This document shows positions 11,452 through 21,713 of a stretch of 64,000 nt of DNA, piece after piece; within the stretch, counting starts at the first letter, position 1; the number at the start of each line of letters is the position of its first letter. The stretch is from Lysobacter sp. Root76 (GTDB lineage Bacteria; Pseudomonadota; Gammaproteobacteria; Xanthomonadales; Xanthomonadaceae). The translations under genes and the position numbers were made by a program. The stretch spans positions 228,550 through 292,549 of the forward strand of contig NZ_LMIK01000001.1 in the NCBI RefSeq assembly GCF_001428685.1. The letters run 5' to 3'. The notes beneath the pieces are model-generated. The model ran no database searches, was not told the origin of the DNA, and was given only the letters and a program-made list of their open reading frames with translations.

Positions 11452-11480
11452 TGAAGCCGGGCCCTGCCCTCCGGCCTTCA
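11452..11480 (-). terminator. hairpin overlapping the phaC stop codon
   Basis: CTGAAGGCCGG...CCGGCTTCAG (read on the minus strand) forms an imperfect GC-rich stem that contains the phaC stop codon. There is no T-run; it is a possible transcript end for the phaE-phaC unit. Confidence 0.35.
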
Positions 11481-12548
11481 GCGCGAGCGCTGCTCCAGCC
11501 ACTCGTGGATCGCGCTGGGCACTTCGCGCTGGGCGCGGCTGGACACGTAGATGCCGATGTGGCCGCCCTTGAACGAGAGTTCGGTGTAGTCGGTGGTGCC
11601 GACCAGCCCGCGCAGCGCGCGCGAAGCGTCGGGCGGGACCAGGTGGTCCTGCTCGGCGTAGATATTCAGCACCGGCATGTCCAGATAGCGCAGGTCGACC
11701 GCGCGCCCGCCGATGTCGATGCCGCCCTTGACGAAGCCGTTGCCCTGGTAGAACTGCTTGATGAATTGGCGGAAGGCTTCGCCGGCCTGGTCGGGCGAGT
11801 CGAAGATCCACTTTTCCATGCGCAGGAAATCCTCCAGCGCGCGCTTGTCGTCGAGGATGTCGACCAGGCCGACGTACTTCTGCACGAACAGGCGCCAGGG
11901 CTTGAGCGTGAGGTAGCACCAGTTCATCAGGTCGGCCTGCACGTTGCCGAGCGTGTCGACGAACTGATCGACGTCGAGGTTGCGGGTCCAGTTCGACAGC
12001 ATGTTGTCGCCGGTGTGGAAATCCACCGGCGTGACCATGGCGATGAAGTTGCGGATCTTGCCCGGGTTCAGGGCGCTGTAGCACAGCGAGAACGCGCCGC
12101 CCTGGCAGATGCCGAGCAGGTTGACCGCATCCATGCGGTGGGCGCCGCGCAGGTAGTCCACCGCGCCGCCGAGGAAACGCTGGATGTAGTCCTCGAGTTC
12201 GAGGTAGCGGTCGGAGCGGTCGGGGTAGCCCCAGTCGAGGATGTAGACGTCCTCGCCGCGCTCGAGCAGGCCGCGCACGATCGACTTGTCCGACTGCAGA
12301 TCGACCATGTACGGCCGGTTGACCAGGGCGTAGGCGATCAGCAGCGGCACCTTGGCCGTGGGCGCGGTTTCGCCGCGGTAGCGGTACAACACGACCTTGC
12401 CGTCGCGCCAGACTTCTTCCTTGCGGGTCGCGCCGTAGTCGACGTCGTCGACCTCGCGCAAGGTGTCCAGGCCGGCGCGCAGCTTGGCCTGGGTGCGCAT
12501 CGCTTCCTGGGCCAGCGATTCGGGAGTGAACTGGATCGGACCGGTCAT
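11478..12548 (-). CDS. phaC: class III polyhydroxyalkanoate synthase subunit PhaC
   Basis: 356 residues, the usual length of class III PhaC. It polymerises (R)-3-hydroxyacyl-CoA, usually 3-hydroxybutyryl-CoA, into PHA on the granule surface, as a complex with PhaE. The lipase-like box G-I-C-Q-G-G near residue 148 carries the catalytic Cys. L-D-W-G-Y-P and D-Y-I near residue 100, A-E-Q-D-H-L-V-P-P (catalytic Asp region) and F-K-G-G-H-I-G (catalytic His region) complete the triad. It starts 1 bp after the phaE stop, so the two are translationally coupled. Confidence 0.95.
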   Translation of the reverse strand: MTGPIQFTPESLAQEAMRTQAKLRAGLDTLREVDDVDYGATRKEEVWRDGKVVLYRYRGETAPTAKVPLLIAYALVNRPYMVDLQSDKSIVRGLLERGEDVYILDWGYPDRSDRYLELEDYIQRFLGGAVDYLRGAHRMDAVNLLGICQGGAFSLCYSALNPGKIRNFIAMVTPVDFHTGDNMLSNWTRNLDVDQFVDTLGNVQADLMNWCYLTLKPWRLFVQKYVGLVDILDDKRALEDFLRMEKWIFDSPDQAGEAFRQFIKQFYQGNGFVKGGIDIGGRAVDLRYLDMPVLNIYAEQDHLVPPDASRALRGLVGTTDYTELSFKGGHIGIYVSSRAQREVPSAIHEWLEQRSR

Positions 12549-12549
12549 G

Positions 12550-13770
12550 TCAGCGCGCTCCCTGGGTCTTGCCGGCCTTGCCCGGCTTGCTCACCTTGGT
12601 CGGCTTACTGGCCTGCTTGGCGGCGGCCTTGCTCGCGACCGGCCGCGCCGGCGGTTGCGGACGGGCGATCGCCGATTTCTTCGCGGCGGCTTTCTTCGCG
12701 GCCGGTTTGCTGGCGCTGGCCTGCTTCGCGGTCGCCGCTGGTTTCGGTGCAGGCGCGGGTGCGGGCTTGGCGCGCGCAGCGTCGTTGGCGGCCGGCTCGC
12801 TCGTGCGCGGGTTCGCGCGCGCGGGCGCCGGCGCCTGGATGGCGTCGCGCAGGCGCCGCACTTCGCGTTCCAGCTGCACGATCTTGCGGTGCGCGGCGTC
12901 GATCTCGGTGCGGGTGGGAATGCCGAACTGGCCGGTCGCGTGCTCGATTTCGGTCTGGATCGCGCCGCGCAGCTTCATCTGCGAATTGACCAGCGCGGCA
13001 TAGGCGTCGCGGAAACGCGGCGACAGCGCGATCTCGGCGTAGGCGTCTTCGGCGGCGTCGATCCACAGATCGAACAGCGCGCGCGCCGACTGCAGCTGGC
13101 GGCCCGGTTCGCTGCGCTCGGCGAGCTTGTCCTCGAAGCGCGCGAACGCGTTCTGCCCGGCTTCGGCCATCAGGGCGTTGTAGGCCTGGCTTTGCTGCTG
13201 GTAGTTCGACTGCGCCAAGGCCAGCGCCTGCAGGCGTTCCTGGTGCTCGCGGGCGAAGCCGAACGCGGGCATGCCCAGCCAGGACTGGCCGTCGCGCTGC
13301 CATTGCTGCAGATACGGCGCGGCCTGTTCCAGCCACTGCGAAAGATCGTTCTGGCCCGGGCCGCGCATGCTGCCGAACACGTCGGCGAAGGGATTGGCGC
13401 CGGCGCCGCCCAGCGCTTGCTTCCAGGCCTGGGCGATGTCGCCGGCGGAGGCGTCGCGGCCGGCGAACTGCGCCGCCAGCTGCTGCATCTGCCCGAACCA
13501 GCCGCGCGCCTGCGCGTTGAAACGCTCCAGCGCCTCGTTGGCCTCGCTGCGGCCGCCCTGGGCCAACTGCGACCACCACTGCACGGCCTCGTTCCAGCCT
13601 GGCGCCGCGGTCTGGGTCGGCGCGGGCGCGCCGCGCATCATTTCGCCCCAGGCGTTCCAGTACTGGCGCGCGACCGCATCGAAGTCGCCTTGTCCAAGGC
13701 CGCCCTGTCCAAAGCTGCCCGCATCGAAGCCGCCGCCTGGCTTGAAACCGCCGAATCCGTGATTGGCCAT
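12550..13770 (-). CDS. phaE: class III PHA synthase subunit PhaE with basic histone-like tail
   Basis: 406 residues. The middle matches PhaE: W-F-G-Q-M-Q-Q-L-A..., N-P-F-A-D-V-F-G, R-E-H-Q-E-R-L-Q-A-L-A, F-D-L-W-I-D-A-A-E-D-A-Y, and a terminal coiled coil I-D-A-A-H-R-K-I-V-Q-L-E-R-E-V-R-R-L-R. Start at ATG 13770 is set by GGAGGG 6 bp upstream; the earlier ATG has no such site. After residue ~320 comes a tail of about 85 residues rich in Ala, Lys and Pro (AAKKAAAKKSAI-type runs), like histone H1 or the DNA-binding tails of PhaF/PhaM granule proteins. This tail is not needed for synthase activity in known PhaE and may bind DNA. Confidence 0.92.
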   Translation of the reverse strand: MANHGFGGFKPGGGFDAGSFGQGGLGQGDFDAVARQYWNAWGEMMRGAPAPTQTAAPGWNEAVQWWSQLAQGGRSEANEALERFNAQARGWFGQMQQLAAQFAGRDASAGDIAQAWKQALGGAGANPFADVFGSMRGPGQNDLSQWLEQAAPYLQQWQRDGQSWLGMPAFGFAREHQERLQALALAQSNYQQQSQAYNALMAEAGQNAFARFEDKLAERSEPGRQLQSARALFDLWIDAAEDAYAEIALSPRFRDAYAALVNSQMKLRGAIQTEIEHATGQFGIPTRTEIDAAHRKIVQLEREVRRLRDAIQAPAPARANPRTSEPAANDAARAKPAPAPAPKPAATAKQASASKPAAKKAAAKKSAIARPQPPARPVASKAAAKQASKPTKVSKPGKAGKTQGAR

Positions 13771-13983
13771 CGCACCCTCCAAGTTTGGGTCGATCATAAC
13801 AACGCGATGTTGCGTCGCGTCAGCCTGTGCCGGGCGGCACGCGATCGGGCGAATCAGCCGCCTCGCATCGCCCTAAGGTCGATGCGGGCAACGGTCGTGG
13901 CGGCATAGAAGGCCGCAGGCCCCATCGCGACTCAGGTCGCTCGCGCCGCGCCGTGGCTCGCGCGCACGCGCCGCGGGACCCGT

Positions 13984-14598
13984 TCAGGGCTTGGGGATGC
14001 GCAAGGTCTTGCTGATCATCAGCGAGCCCGAGAGCGCGAACATCAGCACCAGCGGGTGGAACTGCCAGGGGCCGAGCCGGACCACGCCCAGCCACAGATC
14101 CTGGCCGATCGCGCCCTGCCAGGCCGCGACCGCCAGCACCACCACCAGCAGCAGGCTGGTCGGGATCGGCGTGCCCTCGAAGTATTTGACCTTGTCGTCC
14201 TCGCCCGCCAGCGCCTCGGCGGTGACGTTGTAGCGCGCCAGGCGGCTCACGCCGCAGCCGACGAAGTAGCTCAGCACCGCCCAGTCCCAGCCGCCCTGCA
14301 GGCCGCAGGCGTAGGCCAGCGCGGCCGGAGCTACACCGAAGGAGATCACGTCGGCCAGCGAATCCAGCTCGCGCCCGAGCGTGGACGAAGACTTGCGCCA
14401 GCGCGCGACGCGGCCGTCCAGCGCATCGAAGATGAAGGCCAGCGGGATCAGGGCCATGCCGATCATCAGATCGCGCACCCCGCCCTCCTGCAGGAAACGC
14501 ATCGCCGCGAAGATCGCGCCGGTGCCGCAGAAGGCGTTGGCGAGGGTGAACCAGTCCGCAAGGTGGAAATCGCGGAGCATCGAAAAATGGCGCTTCAT
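13984..14598 (-). CDS. pssA: CDP-diacylglycerol-serine O-phosphatidyltransferase
   Basis: 204 residues with multiple membrane helices. The CDP-alcohol phosphotransferase signature D-G-x2-A-R-x8-G-x3-D-x3-D is exact (DGRVAR, then G, D, D near residues 61-83). It makes phosphatidylserine from CDP-diacylglycerol and serine, the precursor of phosphatidylethanolamine. LADWFTLANAFCGTGAIF at the N-terminus is typical of the integral-membrane PssA type. ATG 14598 has GGAG upstream. It is separate from phaE by about 210 bp with no visible gene. Confidence 0.85.
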   Translation of the reverse strand: MKRHFSMLRDFHLADWFTLANAFCGTGAIFAAMRFLQEGGVRDLMIGMALIPLAFIFDALDGRVARWRKSSSTLGRELDSLADVISFGVAPAALAYACGLQGGWDWAVLSYFVGCGVSRLARYNVTAEALAGEDDKVKYFEGTPIPTSLLLVVVLAVAAWQGAIGQDLWLGVVRLGPWQFHPLVLMFALSGSLMISKTLRIPKP

Positions 14599-14901
14599 GC
14601 GGCGCTCCCTGGGCCGGCCATCGCGGACGAGGACCGGTGGTGGAAACCGACAGCCTGCCAAAGGCGGTGCGAGGCAGGCAAGGGCTTGACGAATGGGCGG
14701 AGGGGCGCGGTTGCCCGCGGCGATGCGCTGAGCGGACAGGAATCTGACGCGGAAGCCCTGTGTCAGGGCGTGCCGCGACGGCCCGTCATGGCGGCGTCTG
14801 CTGAGAGCGAGGCGAGTCGCGATGACGCGGGCTGGCGATCGCGACTGAGCTCGTTCCTGTCGTCACAGGACGGCCTCGACCCGGTCGAGGCCGCGAGCGC
14901 C
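14599..14901. other. intergenic region without recognised content
   Basis: About 300 bp between the pssA start and the oligomer hydrolase stop. I see no plausible gene, repeat unit or intrinsic terminator with a T-run. It must hold the pssA promoter. Confidence 0.6.
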
Positions 14902-16758
14902 TCAGCGCGGCATCGCCAGATTCGCCGCCGATATCGGCTTGCCGACGCCGCGCGGCACGGTCGCGATGGTCGCGTCGGCCGGCAGCGGCGCGCCGCTGTC
15001 CAGGTGCGCCGAGACCCGATCCAGCGCCTCGTACACGTAGGGCAGCAGCGGCAGATAACGCGCGCCGTAGTCCGGCAGGCCGAGGAAGGCGTCGAAGTGC
15101 TGGGCGTTGCGCACCTGCCAGTAGCGCACGTCGCGTCCGGCCGCCTGGGCCTGGCGCACGTAGGGCGCGCTGGTGAACGCGGGCGGAATCAGGCCGTCGT
15201 CGCTGCCGTGGATCACCAGCACCGGCAGCCCCGCACGCGGCAGGCCGGCGCGGGTTTCGGCCACGCCCTTGCGCACGCGATCGGCGTCGGCGCCCTGCCC
15301 TTGCCACAGTGCGCGCAGGCATTGCAGGCCGGCGAAACCGGGATCGGGCAGCTGCATCTTGCTATCGACGATGCCCACGCCCGCGCCCGGCGGAATGCCG
15401 CTGCCATCGGCCCACCACGCCGCGCGCTCGGCGGCGGTGGCCGCACGCGGGCTGAAATCCGGATTCAAGGCCGAGAACGAATAGCCGCAGGGGTGCTCGC
15501 CGACGCGATAGCGACCATAGGCCGAGGCGTAGGTGACCGCCACCGCGCGCCACAGGTCGAAACCGACCGACAGCGCGCCGGAGCGCAGCGCCTGCTCGGT
15601 CCAGCCTTGGGCCCTGAGTTGCTCGTGCGCCGAACGCGCCTGCGCCGCGGTGTCGTCGCCTTCGACCAGGCCGGCGGCCTTGAGCGAGGCGCAGCGCTGC
15701 GTCCACAGCGGCGCGACCTGGGCCGCCAGCGGCGGCTGCGGCAGCGGGCCCAGGGCGGGATCGAGCAGCGCGCAGGGCATCAGCAGCGCGGCCTGCGTGG
15801 TGTAGTCGTAAAGGGCGCGGCCGCCTTCGGCGAGCACGCTGGGTTCGCCGGCGACCACCGCGTCCAACCAGTCACCTTCGAGTTCGGCCGCGCGCAGCAC
15901 CGCGCCGCCGCCGTTGGAAATACCGACCGCGATCACCCGCGTGTTGGCGAAGGTGAACGGAGCCGATTGCGGCAGCGCCTGGTCCAACGCATGCAAGGCG
16001 AACTGCGCGGCCTGCTTCACGTGCCGGCCCCAGTCGGCCTCGGGGTTGTCGGTCGAATGCGCGTGCTTGAAGGCGACGCCGGTGACGCCGACGGCCGCGT
16101 CCGGCGGGAACGCCAGCGTCGCGTCGCGCGCGCCGACCGTGCCGTCGGCGCGCACGCCCTCGCCCGCGTCCAGATCGAAGTAATCGGTGCCGGTGCCCTT
16201 GTCGGTGTAGGCGATCGCGCAGCCCTTGGGCAGGCCCCAGGCCGCGGCGACCGAAATCGCGCCGTAGATCCCGCGCGAGCCCGAGGAAGCGGCGACCACC
16301 ACGCAACGCTTGCCGGCGTCGAAGCCGTCCGGCACCTGCACCAGCACGCGGTGCGGCTTGCTGGCGCCGGGCACGGTGGCCAGAGCACTGAACTCGCGGC
16401 CCGGCACCGCGACGGTGCTGCCGTAGAGCTCGCCGTAACCGCCGCCCGGAGCGAGGTCAGCGATACCGCGCCAATTGGCCCAGATCGCGCGCCGGCGCAG
16501 CTCCGCCACGCTGGGCGCGTCGGCCTGCGCGAACGCCGGCGGCGCCAGCGCGCGCAGCCCGGCCAAGCCGAGGCCGGCGGTGAGCAGATCGTCGTCGCCG
16601 CGGTGCTCGCTGACGCGTTGCGCGGTGAACATCGGCGCGGACTCCTTGGCGAGGCGCGCGCCGCCGCTGGCGCAGGCGGCGAGCACGAAGGGAACGAGCA
16701 GCGCGGCGCAGGCCGCGGCGGCACGCAGGACGGGCGGCTTGATATTGGGCGGATTCAT
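14902..16758 (-). CDS. D-(-)-3-hydroxybutyrate oligomer hydrolase family lipoprotein
   Basis: 618 residues, slightly shorter than the roughly 700 of the Ralstonia enzymes. The N-terminus is a lipoprotein signal (LLVPFVLAAC, Cys near residue 28). The nucleophile motif V-G-I-S-N-G-G-G, the upstream VVAASSGSRGIYGAISVAAAWG and A-Y-T-D-K-G-T-G-T-D-Y-F-D, and the late L-V-I-H-G-S-D-D-G-L-I-P and N-A-Q-H-F-D-A-F (His) segments match the 3HBOH family, which cleaves 3-hydroxybutyrate dimers and oligomers to monomers. The lipoprotein signal places it in the periplasm or on the outer membrane. It is divergent from the response regulator gene with a 91-bp shared promoter holding GTACTTTCGTACA. Confidence 0.82.
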   Translation of the reverse strand: MNPPNIKPPVLRAAAACAALLVPFVLAACASGGARLAKESAPMFTAQRVSEHRGDDDLLTAGLGLAGLRALAPPAFAQADAPSVAELRRRAIWANWRGIADLAPGGGYGELYGSTVAVPGREFSALATVPGASKPHRVLVQVPDGFDAGKRCVVVAASSGSRGIYGAISVAAAWGLPKGCAIAYTDKGTGTDYFDLDAGEGVRADGTVGARDATLAFPPDAAVGVTGVAFKHAHSTDNPEADWGRHVKQAAQFALHALDQALPQSAPFTFANTRVIAVGISNGGGAVLRAAELEGDWLDAVVAGEPSVLAEGGRALYDYTTQAALLMPCALLDPALGPLPQPPLAAQVAPLWTQRCASLKAAGLVEGDDTAAQARSAHEQLRAQGWTEQALRSGALSVGFDLWRAVAVTYASAYGRYRVGEHPCGYSFSALNPDFSPRAATAAERAAWWADGSGIPPGAGVGIVDSKMQLPDPGFAGLQCLRALWQGQGADADRVRKGVAETRAGLPRAGLPVLVIHGSDDGLIPPAFTSAPYVRQAQAAGRDVRYWQVRNAQHFDAFLGLPDYGARYLPLLPYVYEALDRVSAHLDSGAPLPADATIATVPRGVGKPISAANLAMPR

Positions 16759-16794
16759 ACGCCGAGCGTAGCAAGCCGCCGCTGCGCCCTCATC

Positions 16795-16849: not shown

Positions 16850-17515
16850 ATGCCGACCCTGCTGATCGCCGACGACCACCCGCTGTTCCGCGCCGCATTG
16901 CGCCAGGCCGCCGCGGACGCGGTCGCCGACACCCAGGTGCGCGAGACCGACACCCTCGACGGCGTACTCGCCGCGCTCGACGCCGAACCGGGGATCGACC
17001 TGGTCCTGCTCGACCTGCACATGCCCGGCAACCATGGCCTGGCCGGACTGGCGGCGATCCGCGCCCAGTACCCGGGCGTGGCGGTGGTCGTGGTCTCGGC
17101 CAACGACGACCCGCGCGTGGTCCGGCGCGCGCTCGACCACGGCGCCGCCGGCTATCTGCCCAAGAGTTCGGGCCTGGACGAGCTGCGCGACGCGATCCGT
17201 GCCGTGCTGGCTTGCGAGCAATGGTTGCCGGCCTCGCTGCGCGCCGCGGTCGCGCGCACCGACAGCGCCACGGCCGACGCCGACCTCGCCGCGCGCCTGG
17301 CCAGCCTGTCGCCGCAGCAGTTCCGGGTGCTGGCCCTGGTCGCCGACGGTCTGCTCAACAAGCAGATCGCCGACCGCCTGGACGTGCAGGAACGCACGGT
17401 CAAGGCTCACCTGTCGGCGATCTTCGACCGTCTCGGCGTGCGCAACCGCACCCAGGCCGGCGTGGTCCTGCGCGAACTCGAACTCAGCGATCCGGCGCGC
17501 CGGATCGCCGACTGA
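16850..17515 (+). CDS. LuxR/NarL-type response regulator (CrbR/ErdR-like)
   Basis: 221 residues. The receiver domain shows the acidic pair D8-D9, phosphoacceptor D55 in L-L-D-L-H-M-P-G and the conserved Lys in Y-L-P-K-S-S-G. The C-terminal LuxR helix-turn-helix has LSPQQFRVLALVADGLLNKQ and V-K-A-H-L-S-A-I-F-D-R-L-G-V-R-N-R-T-Q-A. In pseudomonads and vibrios, regulators of this type (CrbR, ErdR, AgmR-like) pair with a sodium/solute-symporter-linked histidine kinase and control acetate use. The same kind of kinase is encoded at 18345-21713, so pairing is likely. Confidence 0.85.
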   Translation: MPTLLIADDHPLFRAALRQAAADAVADTQVRETDTLDGVLAALDAEPGIDLVLLDLHMPGNHGLAGLAAIRAQYPGVAVVVVSANDDPRVVRRALDHGAAGYLPKSSGLDELRDAIRAVLACEQWLPASLRAAVARTDSATADADLAARLASLSPQQFRVLALVADGLLNKQIADRLDVQERTVKAHLSAIFDRLGVRNRTQAGVVLRELELSDPARRIAD

Positions 17516-17531
17516 GCGATGCCGCCGCTTC

Positions 17532-17667
17532 CTGTGGGAGCGGCGTAAGCCGCGATAAGGACACTCCTCCGGCGACGAGATTCGGCTCCTCATGCAAAGC
17601 AGAGCATGGGCGAGCGAGCTTGCGTCGTTACCGAATGCCGCGATCGCGGCTTACGCCGCTCCCACAG
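17532..17667. repeat. inverted pair of REP-like units
   Basis: A direct unit (17532-17555) and an inverted unit (17644-17667) face each other across 88 bp, a BIME-like arrangement that could fold as one large hairpin. A third, degenerate palindrome GGAGCGGCG...CGCCGCTCC follows at about 17690-17718. The pair lies between the convergent response regulator and small secreted protein genes. Confidence 0.85.
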
Positions 17668-17752
17668 GAAGCAGGGATAACCCGCAAGGGGAGCGGCGCC
17701 GATCGACGCCGCTCCCGGCGCGGGCCCAATCCGGAACCGATCCGGACCCGAA

Positions 17753-18055
17753 TCAGCTCGCGCTCAACCGCAGCCGTTGCGGCGCGCGGTAGTCGCACTG
17801 CGCCCGATGCGCCGCCGCCTCGCAAGTTTGCTTGCGCGGCTGCAGGGTCAGGGCCTTGGCCCCACCCCCGGACCCGCAATCGGCGAAGCACGCCGCGCGT
17901 TCGGCCTCGCACGCGGCCGGCGTCTCGCCGCTGGCCAGGCAGATGTTGTACAGACGCACGCAGATGCTTTGACACGAAGCCTGCGCGGGCAGCGCCGCGA
18001 ACAGGCCGATACCGGCCGCCAACATATACGACAGCACCATCGACTTGGTCTTCAT
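17753..18055 (-). CDS. small secreted cysteine-rich protein of unknown function
   Basis: 100 residues. The signal peptide (MKTKSMVLSYMLAAGIGLFA...) has a predicted cleavage after PAQA. The mature part begins S-C-Q-S-I-C and has six Cys with spacings 3, 6, 9, 6, 3, a mirror-symmetric layout, then two more Cys (C-E-A-A-A-H-R-A-Q-C) after a Gly-rich linker. The segments between are helix-prone, which suggests a disulfide-stapled helical hairpin. I do not recognise a family. It sits between the response regulator and the hybrid kinase, convergent with the former. Confidence 0.75.
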   Translation of the reverse strand: MKTKSMVLSYMLAAGIGLFAALPAQASCQSICVRLYNICLASGETPAACEAERAACFADCGSGGGAKALTLQPRKQTCEAAAHRAQCDYRAPQRLRLSAS

Positions 18056-18344
18056 CGTTCCTCTCCTTTGAAACGCGAACCCCCTGCCGGGCGGACCCTA
18101 TCTCAGGCCCGGGCCGCAGGTCGCCGGAAAGCCGCGGCGATGCGCGATTCCTGGACGCAGCGCAAGAAAATCGCCGCATTCATCGATGGGACGTTGCGCA
18201 TCGCATCATTGCGAGGACCTGAGTTCGATGACGGCGCGACGGTGCGGATGCGGGTCGTTGCGCATCGCGCCATCGCCAGAGCCTGCGCTCAATGCCGACA
18301 CGACGATTCGGATACGGCGCCGCCGGAACCGCAGCCGGCCCCTG

Positions 18345-21300
18345 CTACGAACACTCCAACTCGCGCGCCGCCAGCATCCGGTCCAGCACCGACTTCAGCG
18401 CCAGCGGTTTGAGCGGCTTGGTCAGCAGCGACAGCCCGGCCTCGTGCACGGCGCGACGCACGCTCTCGCCGCTGTCGGCGCTGAGGATCAGGCTCGGCCG
18501 CGGCCCGAACTCAGCCGCCAGGCGTTCGGCCAGGGCGACGCCGGTATCGCCGCGGTCGAGATGGTAGTCGAACAGCCACAGCGAGGCCGGCGCATCGTGC
18601 ATCAGCTGCCGGGCATGCTCGCCGTCGGCCGCGGTCGCGACTTCGAAACCCCAGCGCCGCAGCAGTTCGGCCAGCGCCGCCAGCGCCTGCGCATCGTTGT
18701 CGACCGCGAGCACGCGCAGGCCGGTGCGGCCGCGCGCGCGATGCGCGCCGGCGTAGGCGCCGGTATGCGCGCCGCGCGCGGGCACCCGCGGCACCCGCAC
18801 CGCGAATGCGGTACCGCGGCCGAGATGGCTGCGCAGGCTCAGCGGCGCATCCAGCAGCTGGGCGATGCGGTCGGCGATCGACAGACCAAGGCCCAGGCCC
18901 TGCCCAGGCGCGTCTTCGCCACGGCGGAACTCCTCGAAAATCGCGACCTGATGTTCCAGGGCGATGCCCGGGCCGGTGTCGTGCACTTCGATGCGCAGGT
19001 GGCCGCCGTCGCGACGCACCCCCAGCAGCACGCTGCCGCGCAGGGCGTAGCGCACCGCGTTGGCGAGGAAGTTCTGCAGCACCCGGCGCAGCAGCTGCGG
19101 GTCGCTGTGGATCCAGGCGTCGGTGGCGATGAAGCGGAAGCGCAGCCCGCGCGCGGCCGCGATCGCGCCGAATTCCGAAGCCAGCGGCTCCAGCACCTCG
19201 GCCAGCGGAAACTCGCGCGGCTGCGGCACCAGGCCGCCGGCCTGCAGGCGCGACATGTCGAGCAAGCCGGTCAGCAGGTCGCCGGTGGAATCCAGCGCGC
19301 CGCTGATCTGGGCCACGGTTTCGCGCTGCTGCGCGCCCTGCACCTGCTGCGACAGCGCGTCGGCGAACAACTGCGCGGCGTGCAGCGGCTGCATCAGGTC
19401 GTGGCCGATCGCGGCCAGGAAGCGGCTCTTGGCGTCGTTGGCGCGTTCGGCTTCGCCCTTGGCGATCTCCAGATCGGTCGTGCGCTCGATCACGCGCTGT
19501 TCCAGGGTTTCGTTGGCCTGGATCAGCCCGGCCTCGGCGCGGCGGAACGCGGTGACGTCGGTGAAAGTGGCGACGAAGCCGCCGCCGGGCATGGGGTTGC
19601 CGCGGATCTCGACGATGCTGCCGTCGGGCAGCACGCGTTCGGACAGGTGCGGGGTGCCGGCGCGCATGAACGCCAGGCGCCGTTCCAGCGCGCGTTCGAG
19701 CTGGCCCTGCAAGGGCCGGCCCGAGGGCGGCATGCGCTGCAAGGCCCAGCGCGAGAGTTCGGCGATCGGACGCCCGACCTGCAGCAGTTCGGGCGGGAAA
19801 TCGAACAGCTCGGCGTAGCGCCGGTTCCAGGCCACCAGGCGCAACTGCGCGTCGACCACGCTGATGCCCTGGCTCATGTTCTGCAGCGCCGCTTCCAGCA
19901 CGCGCTGGTTGAAGCGCAGGTCGGCAGAAGCCTCGCCGACGATCGCCGCGACCGTGTCCAGATCGCGTCCGGCGTCGCGGCGCGCGGCGTCCAGCAGCAC
20001 GCGCGCCGAGGCCGAACCCAGCACCGCCGCGAGTTCGCGTTCGACCCGGGCCTCGATCTGCGCCGCCACCGCTTCGCCGCTGGGCACGCCCTGCAGCAGT
20101 TGCGCGACGCGCTCGCGCGGCAGGAAACGCAGGCCGGTGTCGCGCAGGGTCTGCACGTCCAGGCCGCGTTGCGCGCGCCGCGGCGCCTCGCGCCGCCACA
20201 CCGCCGCGATCACCGTGGCCAGCGTGCCCACGAACAGGCTGGCGCCGACCGCACGCCCGAGCCGGCTCCAGCCGGTGAGCCCGAACAGCCCTTCCGGCGA
20301 CAGCGAGCCCAGGCCGTACGGCCCGTTCTCCAGCCAGGCCGGGGCCACGCCGCGCGCCGACAGCATCATCGGCAGCAGCAGCACCCAGGCCCAGGCGGCG
20401 AAACCGGCAAGCACGCCGATCACCGCCGCGCGCGGCGGCGTCTGCGGCCGCCACACCGCGAAGCCCAGCGCCGGCGCCAGCGTCGCCAGCGCCGAGAACG
20501 ACACCGCGCCGACGTCCGCCAGCGCTTCGCTGCCGGCGATCAGGCGGCTGTAAGCCCAGGCCAGCAGCATGATCACGACGATGCCGCTGCGGCGCAGCGC
20601 CAGTACGTGGCCGCGCAGATCGCTGCCGTCGTTGCGCGACCACAGCCCGCGCAGCAGACCCGGCGCGAACCAGTGGTTGCCGATCATCAGGCTCAAGGTC
20701 AGCGTGCTGACCACGACCATGCCGGTGGCCGCGCTGAGCCCGCCGAGGAACGCGAACAGGGCCAGCCCTTCGTGCCCCTGCGACAAGGGCAGCGCCAGCA
20801 CGTACAGATCCGAAGGCACCCCGCTGCCGCCCAGCAAGGCCTGCCCGGCCTTGGCCAAGGGCAGCACCGGCAGCGCGATCAGCACCAGGTACAGCGGAAA
20901 CTGCCAGCGCGCCGTGCGCACGTCGCCCTCGTCGCGGCACTCGACCACGCCGACATGGAACTGGTGCGGCAGGATGAACATCGCCAGCGCGCCCAGCAGC
21001 ACCAGCGGCGCGAAACCGCCGGCCGGGTCGGCGGGCGGCGGCGGCGCGGCCGCCGTTGCCGGCACGTCCAGGCCGAACCATACGAACAGGCCCAGCGACA
21101 GCATCGCGGCGAGCTTGAACACCGACTCGAACGCCATCGCCAGGACCAGGCCGCGGTTGTGCTCGGCGGCGCTGGCGCGGCGGGTGCCGAACAGCATCGC
21201 GAACAGCGCCATCGCCAGCGCCACGTACAGCGCGCTGTCCTGCCAGGCCGGCGACGCGACCGCATCGGGCGAGCGCGTGGTCAGCATCGCGAAGCTCATC

Positions 21301-21713
21301 GCCACGGCCTTGAGCTGCAGCGCGATGTAGGGGATCAGGCCGAGCGCGGCGATCAGGGTCACGGTCGCGGCCAGCCAGGCATCCTTGCCCAATCGCGTCG
21401 CGATCAGGTCCGCCAGCGAGGTCGCGTTGGTCTCGCGCGCCAGCCGCACCAGCTTCATCATGAAACCGACCGCGAGCGCGTACAGCAGGATCGAGCCGAG
21501 GAAGGTCGGCGGCAGCGGCCAGCCGTAGCGCGCGGCCTGGGTCACGGTGCCGTAGAAGGTCCAGGAAGTGCAGTGCACCGCCAGCGACAGGGAATAGATA
21601 TGCCGCCAGTGTCGCGCCAGTACGGCCGGCCGGCGCTCGGCGTAGAGCGCGGTGCCGAACATCAGCGCCAGCCAGGCCATGCTGGCCAGGGCGACGGCGG
21701 TGAGGCTCAGCAT
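18345..21713 (-). CDS. sodium:solute symporter-like hybrid histidine kinase (CrbS/MxtR-like)
   Basis: 1122 residues. About the first 550 form a sodium/solute symporter (SLC5)-like domain with a dozen or so membrane helices (for example H-C-T-S-W-T-F-Y-G-T near residue 47). A PAS-like segment lies at about 610-720. The histidine kinase core has the H-box S-R-F-L-A-A-I-G-H-D-L-M-Q-P-L (about 770), N-box N-F-L-A-N-A-V-R-Y-A (about 885), D-T-G-P-G-I and G-L-G-L-G-L-S-I. A C-terminal receiver follows (V-L-A-V-D-N-D, F-D-Y-H-L-D, L-T-K-P-L-K). This is the CrbS/MxtR architecture that senses or couples short-chain carboxylate uptake to gene control. Its likely partner is the LuxR-type regulator at 16850. 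Confidence 0.88.
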   Translation of the reverse strand: MLSLTAVALASMAWLALMFGTALYAERRPAVLARHWRHIYSLSLAVHCTSWTFYGTVTQAARYGWPLPPTFLGSILLYALAVGFMMKLVRLARETNATSLADLIATRLGKDAWLAATVTLIAALGLIPYIALQLKAVAMSFAMLTTRSPDAVASPAWQDSALYVALAMALFAMLFGTRRASAAEHNRGLVLAMAFESVFKLAAMLSLGLFVWFGLDVPATAAAPPPPADPAGGFAPLVLLGALAMFILPHQFHVGVVECRDEGDVRTARWQFPLYLVLIALPVLPLAKAGQALLGGSGVPSDLYVLALPLSQGHEGLALFAFLGGLSAATGMVVVSTLTLSLMIGNHWFAPGLLRGLWSRNDGSDLRGHVLALRRSGIVVIMLLAWAYSRLIAGSEALADVGAVSFSALATLAPALGFAVWRPQTPPRAAVIGVLAGFAAWAWVLLLPMMLSARGVAPAWLENGPYGLGSLSPEGLFGLTGWSRLGRAVGASLFVGTLATVIAAVWRREAPRRAQRGLDVQTLRDTGLRFLPRERVAQLLQGVPSGEAVAAQIEARVERELAAVLGSASARVLLDAARRDAGRDLDTVAAIVGEASADLRFNQRVLEAALQNMSQGISVVDAQLRLVAWNRRYAELFDFPPELLQVGRPIAELSRWALQRMPPSGRPLQGQLERALERRLAFMRAGTPHLSERVLPDGSIVEIRGNPMPGGGFVATFTDVTAFRRAEAGLIQANETLEQRVIERTTDLEIAKGEAERANDAKSRFLAAIGHDLMQPLHAAQLFADALSQQVQGAQQRETVAQISGALDSTGDLLTGLLDMSRLQAGGLVPQPREFPLAEVLEPLASEFGAIAAARGLRFRFIATDAWIHSDPQLLRRVLQNFLANAVRYALRGSVLLGVRRDGGHLRIEVHDTGPGIALEHQVAIFEEFRRGEDAPGQGLGLGLSIADRIAQLLDAPLSLRSHLGRGTAFAVRVPRVPARGAHTGAYAGAHRARGRTGLRVLAVDNDAQALAALAELLRRWGFEVATAADGEHARQLMHDAPASLWLFDYHLDRGDTGVALAERLAAEFGPRPSLILSADSGESVRRAVHEAGLSLLTKPLKPLALKSVLDRMLAARELECS

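What the first reader, a model, noticed from the sequence alone, without database searches (positions are those of the whole stretch)
17753..18055. Secreted peptide with mirror-symmetric cysteine spacing 3-6-9-6-3
The mature protein has C-x3-C-x6-C-x9-C-x6-C-x3-C, a palindromic arrangement that suggests a helical hairpin stapled by three disulfides, reminiscent of twin CX3C or alpha-hairpinin folds, plus two further Cys. I know no described bacterial family with this exact pattern. A predatory or antibiotic-producing Lysobacter could use such a peptide as a toxin, inhibitor or envelope factor.
Basis: partly seen in the sequence, partly recalled or inferred. Interest (0 to 1): 0.6.

Follow-up and report, generated by a model that had tools for sequence, protein, structure and literature searches.

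The report
Bacterial secreted disulfide-stapled helical hairpin family
The window gene encodes a small exported protein predicted to fold into two helices stapled by a ladder of disulfide bonds, and it belongs to a large, apparently unnamed family of unknown function in Lysobacter and related bacteria, with about twenty copies in some genomes.

Summary
In detail: 17753-18055 (-) is a 100-aa gene with a Shine-Dalgarno site, a Sec-type signal and Cys 28, 32, 39, 49, 56, 60 (3-6-9-6-3), plus Cys78 and Cys88. It is not chance. Four same-genus orthologues (76-82% identical) keep all eight mature Cys, and a profile finds relatives in 76 of 395 family genomes and 20 of 20 genus genomes (1 to 23 matches each, often in tandem). 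Of 142 distinct members collected, 51 have exactly 3-6-9-6-3. AlphaFold2 of the mature 40 aa gives a helical hairpin (pLDDT 88). Outer Cys come and go in pairs: C0 with C7 in 39 members, neither in 77, 3 discordant. This fits nested disulfides, although shared ancestry is poorly controlled. No Pfam, NCBIfam, PHROGs, PADLOC or PDB family was matched. Plant alpha-hairpinins and small Tims are analogues whose published Cys motifs are not met. Function is open: charge is near zero, positive selection is not supported, no shared gene partner was found, and the flanking kinase/regulator pair lacks this gene in 15 of 20 genomes. Best reading: an envelope or secreted protein-binding scaffold. A predatory peptide arsenal is possible but unproven.

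The parts
17753..18055 (-). gene for the 100-aa secreted hairpin protein
   Evidence: syntenic orthologues
17978..18055 (-). signal peptide, residues 1-26 (cleavage AQA|S, by eye)
   Evidence: translation; inference
17876..17974 (-). helical hairpin, Cys28 to Cys60, C-x3-C-x6-C-x9-C-x6-C-x3-C
   Evidence: model (helices at residues 2-15 and 20-36 of the 40-mer; block means of pLDDT 91, 97, 95 for its first 30 residues); Cys co-occurrence
17756..17875 (-). C-terminal tail, residues 61-100, with Cys78 and Cys88; less conserved
   Evidence: tail dN above hairpin dN; pLDDT under 50 from residue 63
18063..18067 (-). Shine-Dalgarno AGGAG, 7 nt before the ATG
17681..17724 (.). G+C-rich inverted repeat just past the 3' end of the gene, possible transcript end
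   Evidence: the terminator scan found none
16850..17515 (+). neighbour: LuxR-type response regulator; nearest NCBIfam model ErdR (221.6 bits, cut-off 390)
18345..21713 (-). neighbour: hybrid histidine kinase, nearest NCBIfam model NahK/ErcS family (363.9 bits, cut-off 400)

Best explanation
The gene makes a Sec-exported protein whose mature part folds into two antiparallel helices locked by three nested disulfides (Cys28-60, 32-56, 39-49), plus a short tail with one more possible disulfide. It is one member of an apparently undescribed family of secreted disulfide-ladder helical hairpins in the Lysobacterales. Shown: gene, Cys pattern, family, copy numbers. Predicted: fold. Inferred: disulfide pairing and oxidation outside the cytoplasm. 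Most likely mode of action (inference): a stable, near-neutral binding scaffold in the periplasm, at the cell surface or outside, that recognises a partner protein through the exposed helix faces and the loop. The window copy would have a conserved partner, whereas the multi-copy arrays of other Lysobacter have diversified surfaces.
For: Orthologues and relatives. Hairpin model. Mirror-pair gain and loss of Cys: C0 and C7 both present 39, neither 77, discordant 3, of 119 (representatives under 70% identical: 19, 59, 2 of 80); with 12 residues read downstream, C1 and C6 both present 92, both absent 5, discordant 0 of 97 representatives. Loop length varies from 4 to 14 (9 in 86 of 142) around the flanking steps (the two X6 steps were a criterion). 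Purifying selection on the hairpin. Near-zero charge. Three profile matches outside the order carry lipoprotein-like signals (L083-L085), which points to the envelope. In same-locus paralogues the mature part changes faster than the signal: omega 0.31-0.34 against 0.12.
Against: No partner, phenotype or expression data. No neighbour family shared among the 10 hairpin loci examined in one genome beyond one Clp-like pair (crude gene calls of 100 aa and more). On the tree only 1 supported independent change bears on each Cys pairing (8 and 3 on all branches, supported or not), so shared ancestry could explain much of the co-occurrence. Nine of 139 distinct relatives lacked the 6-x-6 core, and ORFs over 260 aa had been dropped before that count. 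The fold is a prediction from 4 close sequences, and the full-length model is poor. The three matches outside the order rest mostly on Cys and could be convergent.
Confidence: 0.5

Rival explanations
1. A secreted toxin or inhibitor arsenal: Lysobacter releases many hairpin variants that act on prey or competitors, like small venom or plant-defence hairpins.
For: Up to 23 profile matches per genome and tandem arrays; signal more conserved than the non-Cys mature part in 21 of 22 same-locus pairs at 50% identity or more (19 of 20, and 186 of 263 in pairs between loci); conserved Cys framework with variable surface; an array lies beside what looks like an efflux operon (by eye).
Against: Codon-model omega of the mature part is 0.31-0.34, well below 1, so positive selection is not supported (14 disjoint pairs; 0.39-0.40, 10 pairs). 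The counting method had given dN above dS in some pairs. Median net charge -0.5. Window orthologues are strongly conserved. No neighbour family is shared between loci.
Confidence: 0.25
2. A periplasmic metal- or redox-active protein that works through reversible thiols.
For: Eight Cys in 74 aa; one relative lies beside a katG-like gene in three genomes (by eye); small Tim proteins, of similar shape, bind zinc when reduced (PMC3759932, passages).
Against: Cys gained and lost as mirror pairs fit structural disulfides; the window hairpin has no His, Met or CXXC; the katG-like neighbour is one locus of many.
Confidence: 0.12
3. A ligand or accessory of the flanking hybrid kinase and response regulator.
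For: It lies between them in the 5 of 20 genus genomes that have it there.
Against: In the other 15 of 20 the pair is present and tblastn finds no such gene at that place; in the MAG with the 60% relative, no other predicted gene of the locus matched a window gene.
Confidence: 0.08
4. A spurious ORF with a chance Cys pattern.
For: The palindrome was picked by eye, and G+C-rich DNA has long open frames; palindromic spacing of some kind arises in 0.83% of shuffles.
Against: Orthologues, purifying selection, ribosome site, family.
Confidence: 0.02

Closest known systems
Plant alpha-hairpinins (4C and 6C classes)
   Same: Small secreted helix-loop-helix peptides with 4-6 Cys mirrored about the loop (PMC11591084, passages)
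   Different: Published motifs are CX3CX4-20CX3C and CX3CX3CX4-20CX3CX3C; here the inner step is X6, 3-6-9-6-3, and some members add a fourth pair. Bacterial, and no sequence match was found.
Mitochondrial small Tim proteins (twin CX3C)
   Same: Helix-loop-helix with nested disulfides joining CX3C motifs (PMC3759932, passages)
   Different: Two disulfides, intermembrane-space chaperone hexamers; here a third inner pair and a Sec-type signal; no Pfam match.
Neurotoxin B-IV-like (Pfam Toxin_13)
   Same: Weak Pfam match for two relatives; B-IV is, from memory, a disulfide-rich helical hairpin
   Different: E 1.4 and 0.25, 9.6 and 11.9 bits against a cut-off of 21; the window protein itself has no hit.
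Viscotoxin A3 (thionin)
   Same: Weak structural overlap, Z 3.0 over 33 residues, rmsd 4.3
   Different: Different Cys framework (recalled); the match is not significant (Foldseek E 9.7).

Membership tests
Plant alpha-hairpinins | 4C motif CX3CX4-20CX3C | tested here: not met
   Between the two CX3C pairs of the window protein lie 23 residues, two of them Cys (motif from PMC11591084)
Plant alpha-hairpinins | 6C motif CX3CX3CX4-20CX3CX3C | tested here: not met
   Inner gaps of the window hairpin are 6, not 3; the relatives were collected with X6 as a criterion, so they add no test
Plant alpha-hairpinins | Helix-loop-helix fold | tested here: met
   Predicted only
Small Tim (twin CX3C) proteins | Twin CX3C with two disulfides (C1-C4, C2-C3) | tested here: not met
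   Six Cys in the hairpin; description from passages of PMC3759932
Small Tim (twin CX3C) proteins | Sequence match to the Pfam family | tested here: not met
   No Pfam hit for the window protein at E up to 10, and no Tim family among the hits of the 14 members of A1
Neurotoxin B-IV-like (Toxin_13) | Pfam gathering score 21 bits | tested here: not met
   No hit for the window protein; best relative 11.9 bits
Thionins (viscotoxin A3) | Shared fold by structure comparison | tested here: inconclusive
   Z 3.0, rmsd 4.3 over 33 residues
Classical cationic antimicrobial peptide | Net positive charge | tested here: not met
   Window mature hairpin is net negative by its sequence; median -0.5 and 7 of 142 members at +3 or more
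The hairpin family described here | Sec-type signal, C-x6-C-x(n)-C-x6-C core, outer Cys in mirror pairs | tested here: met
   the family was collected partly with this pattern, so this is not an independent test

The most novel reading that the evidence does not exclude
Lysobacter keeps a venom-like gene superfamily: arrays and scattered copies, about twenty per genome in some species, of secreted peptides with a conserved signal, a conserved disulfide-ladder hairpin and a diversified surface, used as extracellular binders or toxins against prey and competitors, on a 2-, 3- or 4-disulfide scaffold not described before.
Probability: 0.22. Interest if true: 0.85.

Novelty: new variant of a known kind. 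Interest (0 to 1): 0.6.

Why it matters
Disulfide-stapled helical hairpins are known best from plants, animal venoms and mitochondria (partly from memory). A bacterial family with its own X6-spaced disulfide ladder, present in all 20 genus genomes searched and with 19-23 profile matches in seven of them, would add a compact natural scaffold and a set of uncharacterised exported proteins to a predatory and biocontrol genus. None of the family libraries searched names it, and the claim can be tested directly by secretome mass spectrometry and gene deletion.

Tried and rejected
Positive selection: the counting method gave dN above dS in the mature part of several same-locus pairs. A codon model with position-specific base frequencies gave omega 0.39-0.40 (10 disjoint pairs after I had left out six loci, L058, L059, L062, L116, L117 and L157, mostly as orthologous repeats). 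One search repeated it with no locus left out and with corrected boundaries: 14 disjoint pairs, omega 0.31-0.34 for the mature part and 0.12 for the signal. I dropped positive selection. Most of these pairs are near saturation, so the estimate is rough.

Misplaced core: the script placed the core wrongly in members with an extra upstream Cys; one search corrected it. One search had the same fault; redid its counts (exact spacing 51, now of 142 instead of 143; median charge -0.5 instead of 0).

Two-component ligand: not the main reading, because 15 of 20 genomes have the kinase and regulator without the gene at that place.

Structure comparison: no PDB match at E 0.001 or better; VIA-align, given only 3 chains, best Z 3.0; no viral match at E 0.001 or better. 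This does not show that the fold is new. PDB sequences: the window protein none, A1 three hits at E 0.67 and above, A4 none. Phages and plasmids: no match to the window protein at E 1. Full-length model: poor.

Literature: the eight searches listed no paper that describes this family, judged from titles and starts of abstracts. Several lists were capped (for instance 10 of 507, 12 of 49, 6 of 47), and the library lacks most subscription journals and bioRxiv. Of two papers I saw passages only (PMC11591084, PMC3759932).

Full report
WHAT IS THERE. The minus-strand ORF 17753-18055 codes for 100 aa. It starts with a Sec-type signal ending AQA|S (by eye) and continues with S-C-QSI-C-VRLYNI-C-LASGETPAA-C-EAERAA-C-FAD-C, a glycine-rich linker and a tail with Cys78 and Cys88. 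The spacing 3-6-9-6-3 is exact. AGGAG lies 7 nt before the ATG. A G+C-rich inverted repeat at 17681-17724 follows the stop; the scan for promoters and terminators found none.

MORE THAN CHANCE. Random placement of 8 Cys in 74 residues gives some palindromic six in 0.83% of 200,000 trials and this one once. The stronger evidence is conservation. Of 20 genus genomes (own included) four others have an orthologue at 76-82% identity, each with the eight mature Cys. A MAG relative at 60% keeps the six hairpin Cys and one tail Cys. Among the five same-genus genes the hairpin dN is 0-0.05 against dS 0.25-0.69, while tail dN reaches 0.32: strong purifying selection on the hairpin.

A FAMILY. The single-protein search already brought in distant relatives with the same spacing, beside hits that look like chance. 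A profile from 14 relatives (A1; chosen with the motif, so its Cys columns are not an independent test) found matches in 76 of 395 genomes of the family drawn, 11 of 54 genera; 21 of 250 of the order, 10 of them in other families; 5 of 321 of the class, 3 of them outside the order; and 2 of 299 of the phylum, both inside the family. The draws overlap, include the own genome, and score only a capped number of candidates per genome, so they are lower bounds. In the genus 20 of 20 genomes have matches at E 0.001: own genome 1, range 1 to 23, with 19-23 in seven genomes (candidates capped at 150 in most of the genomes, and a few matches run across a stop). The shorter profile A4 adds a second member in the own genome (E 2e-4). 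Arrays of several copies occur in several species. From the loci held I collected 142 distinct members with a C-x6-C-x(4-16)-C-x6-C core, a criterion of the script, close orthologues included; 51 have exactly 3-6-9-6-3, 31 of these with a fourth pair C0/C7; others have 3-6-9-6-4, 2-6-9-6-5, 3-6-8-6-3 and so on. The consensus of 33 representatives has C-xxx-Y-xx-C in both helices; the window has the Tyr in the first helix only.

FOLD. The mature 40 aa, modelled with 4 sequences, gave pLDDT 88.3, pTM 0.61 and two helices, 2-15 and 20-36. The full-length model was poor outside the hairpin. The mirror pairs 28-60, 32-56, 39-49 share one sum, as an antiparallel hairpin requires (from the sequence).

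DISULFIDES. There were 130 distinct cores; 9 further relatives lacked the core and ORFs over 260 aa were dropped before the count. Among the 119 with Cys on both sides, an extra upstream Cys (C0) and an extra downstream Cys (C7) were both present in 39, neither in 77, discordant in 3 (Fisher 3e-28); among representatives under 70% identical 19, 59 and 2. C1 and C6: 119 both, 5 neither, 6 with C1 only when 9 residues downstream are read. With 12 residues and 97 representatives it is 92, 5 and 0. This fits nested pairs C0-C7, C1-C6, C2-C5, C3-C4. Caution: the tree is poorly resolved and offers one supported independent change for each test (8 and 3 on all branches), so the Fisher values overstate the evidence.

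SURROUNDINGS. The gene lies between a hybrid kinase nearest the NahK/ErcS family and a LuxR-type regulator nearest ErdR (both below NCBIfam cut-offs). Kinase and regulator lie together in 20 of 20 genus genomes, with this gene between them in 5, so it is not an obligate part of that system. Ten hairpin loci of one other genome share no neighbour family except one Clp-like pair among 65 crude gene calls. One array lies beside what looks like an efflux operon and one single copy beside a katG-like gene (by eye).

FUNCTION. Median mature length 43, net charge -0.5, quartiles -2 to +1, 7 of 142 at +3 or more: not a typical cationic peptide. In 21 of 22 same-locus pairs the signal is more conserved than the non-Cys mature part; between loci it is 186 of 263 pairs (before the core was corrected). 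In 14 disjoint same-locus pairs omega is 0.12 for the signal and 0.31-0.34 for the mature part: faster change in the mature part, but no positive selection, with synonymous change near saturation. The three matches outside the order look like lipoproteins (L083-L085, by eye; one just under the Pfam cut-off for a lipoprotein site). I therefore favour a disulfide-locked binding scaffold at the envelope or outside, with a secreted arsenal as the chief rival.

KNOWN FAMILIES. The window protein has no Pfam, NCBIfam, PADLOC or PHROGs match. The relatives tested (14, window included; 10; 10 more against Pfam; one against PADLOC) gave only sub-threshold hits, the best of them lipoprotein-site LPAM_1 at E 0.0011 and DUF1459 at E 0.0056. 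Plant alpha-hairpinins have CX3CX4-20CX3C or CX3CX3CX4-20CX3CX3C (PMC11591084, passages), small Tims the twin CX3C (PMC3759932, passages); neither motif is met. The protein should work like a stapled hairpin but is not shown to be a member of those families.

VERDICT. A real, apparently undescribed bacterial variant of the disulfide-stapled helical hairpin, of unknown function; interest 0.6.

Noticed in passing
17527-17556 and 17643-17672: Perfect 30-nt inverted repeat with 86 nt between the arms, a REP-like element between the regulator and the hairpin gene.
   Followed up: no
18188-18315: Two tandem copies of a 64-nt unit, 75% alike, between the hairpin gene and the kinase gene.
   Followed up: no
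11478-16770: Genes of polyhydroxyalkanoate type beside the regulator: an alpha/beta hydrolase with a sub-threshold PhaC match, a PhaE-type subunit and a 3HB-oligomer hydrolase, with a CDP-alcohol phosphatidyltransferase among them.
   Followed up: partly
L066, L069, L070, L072: Hairpin arrays of other Lysobacter lie beside what looks like a MarR/outer-membrane lipoprotein/EmrA/EmrB efflux operon and radA (names by eye from the sequence).
   Followed up: partly
L067, L068, L075: A single hairpin gene lies beside a katG-like gene in three genomes (by eye).
   Followed up: no
L151, L157, L162, L165, L167: A second large subfamily with C-x2-C-x6-C-x(n)-C-x6-C and a C-terminal CP, in several copies per locus, some with near-identical signals.
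   Followed up: partly
L083, L084, L085: Lipoprotein-like relatives outside the order, spacing 3-6-8-6-3 and 3-6-13-6-3.
   Followed up: partly
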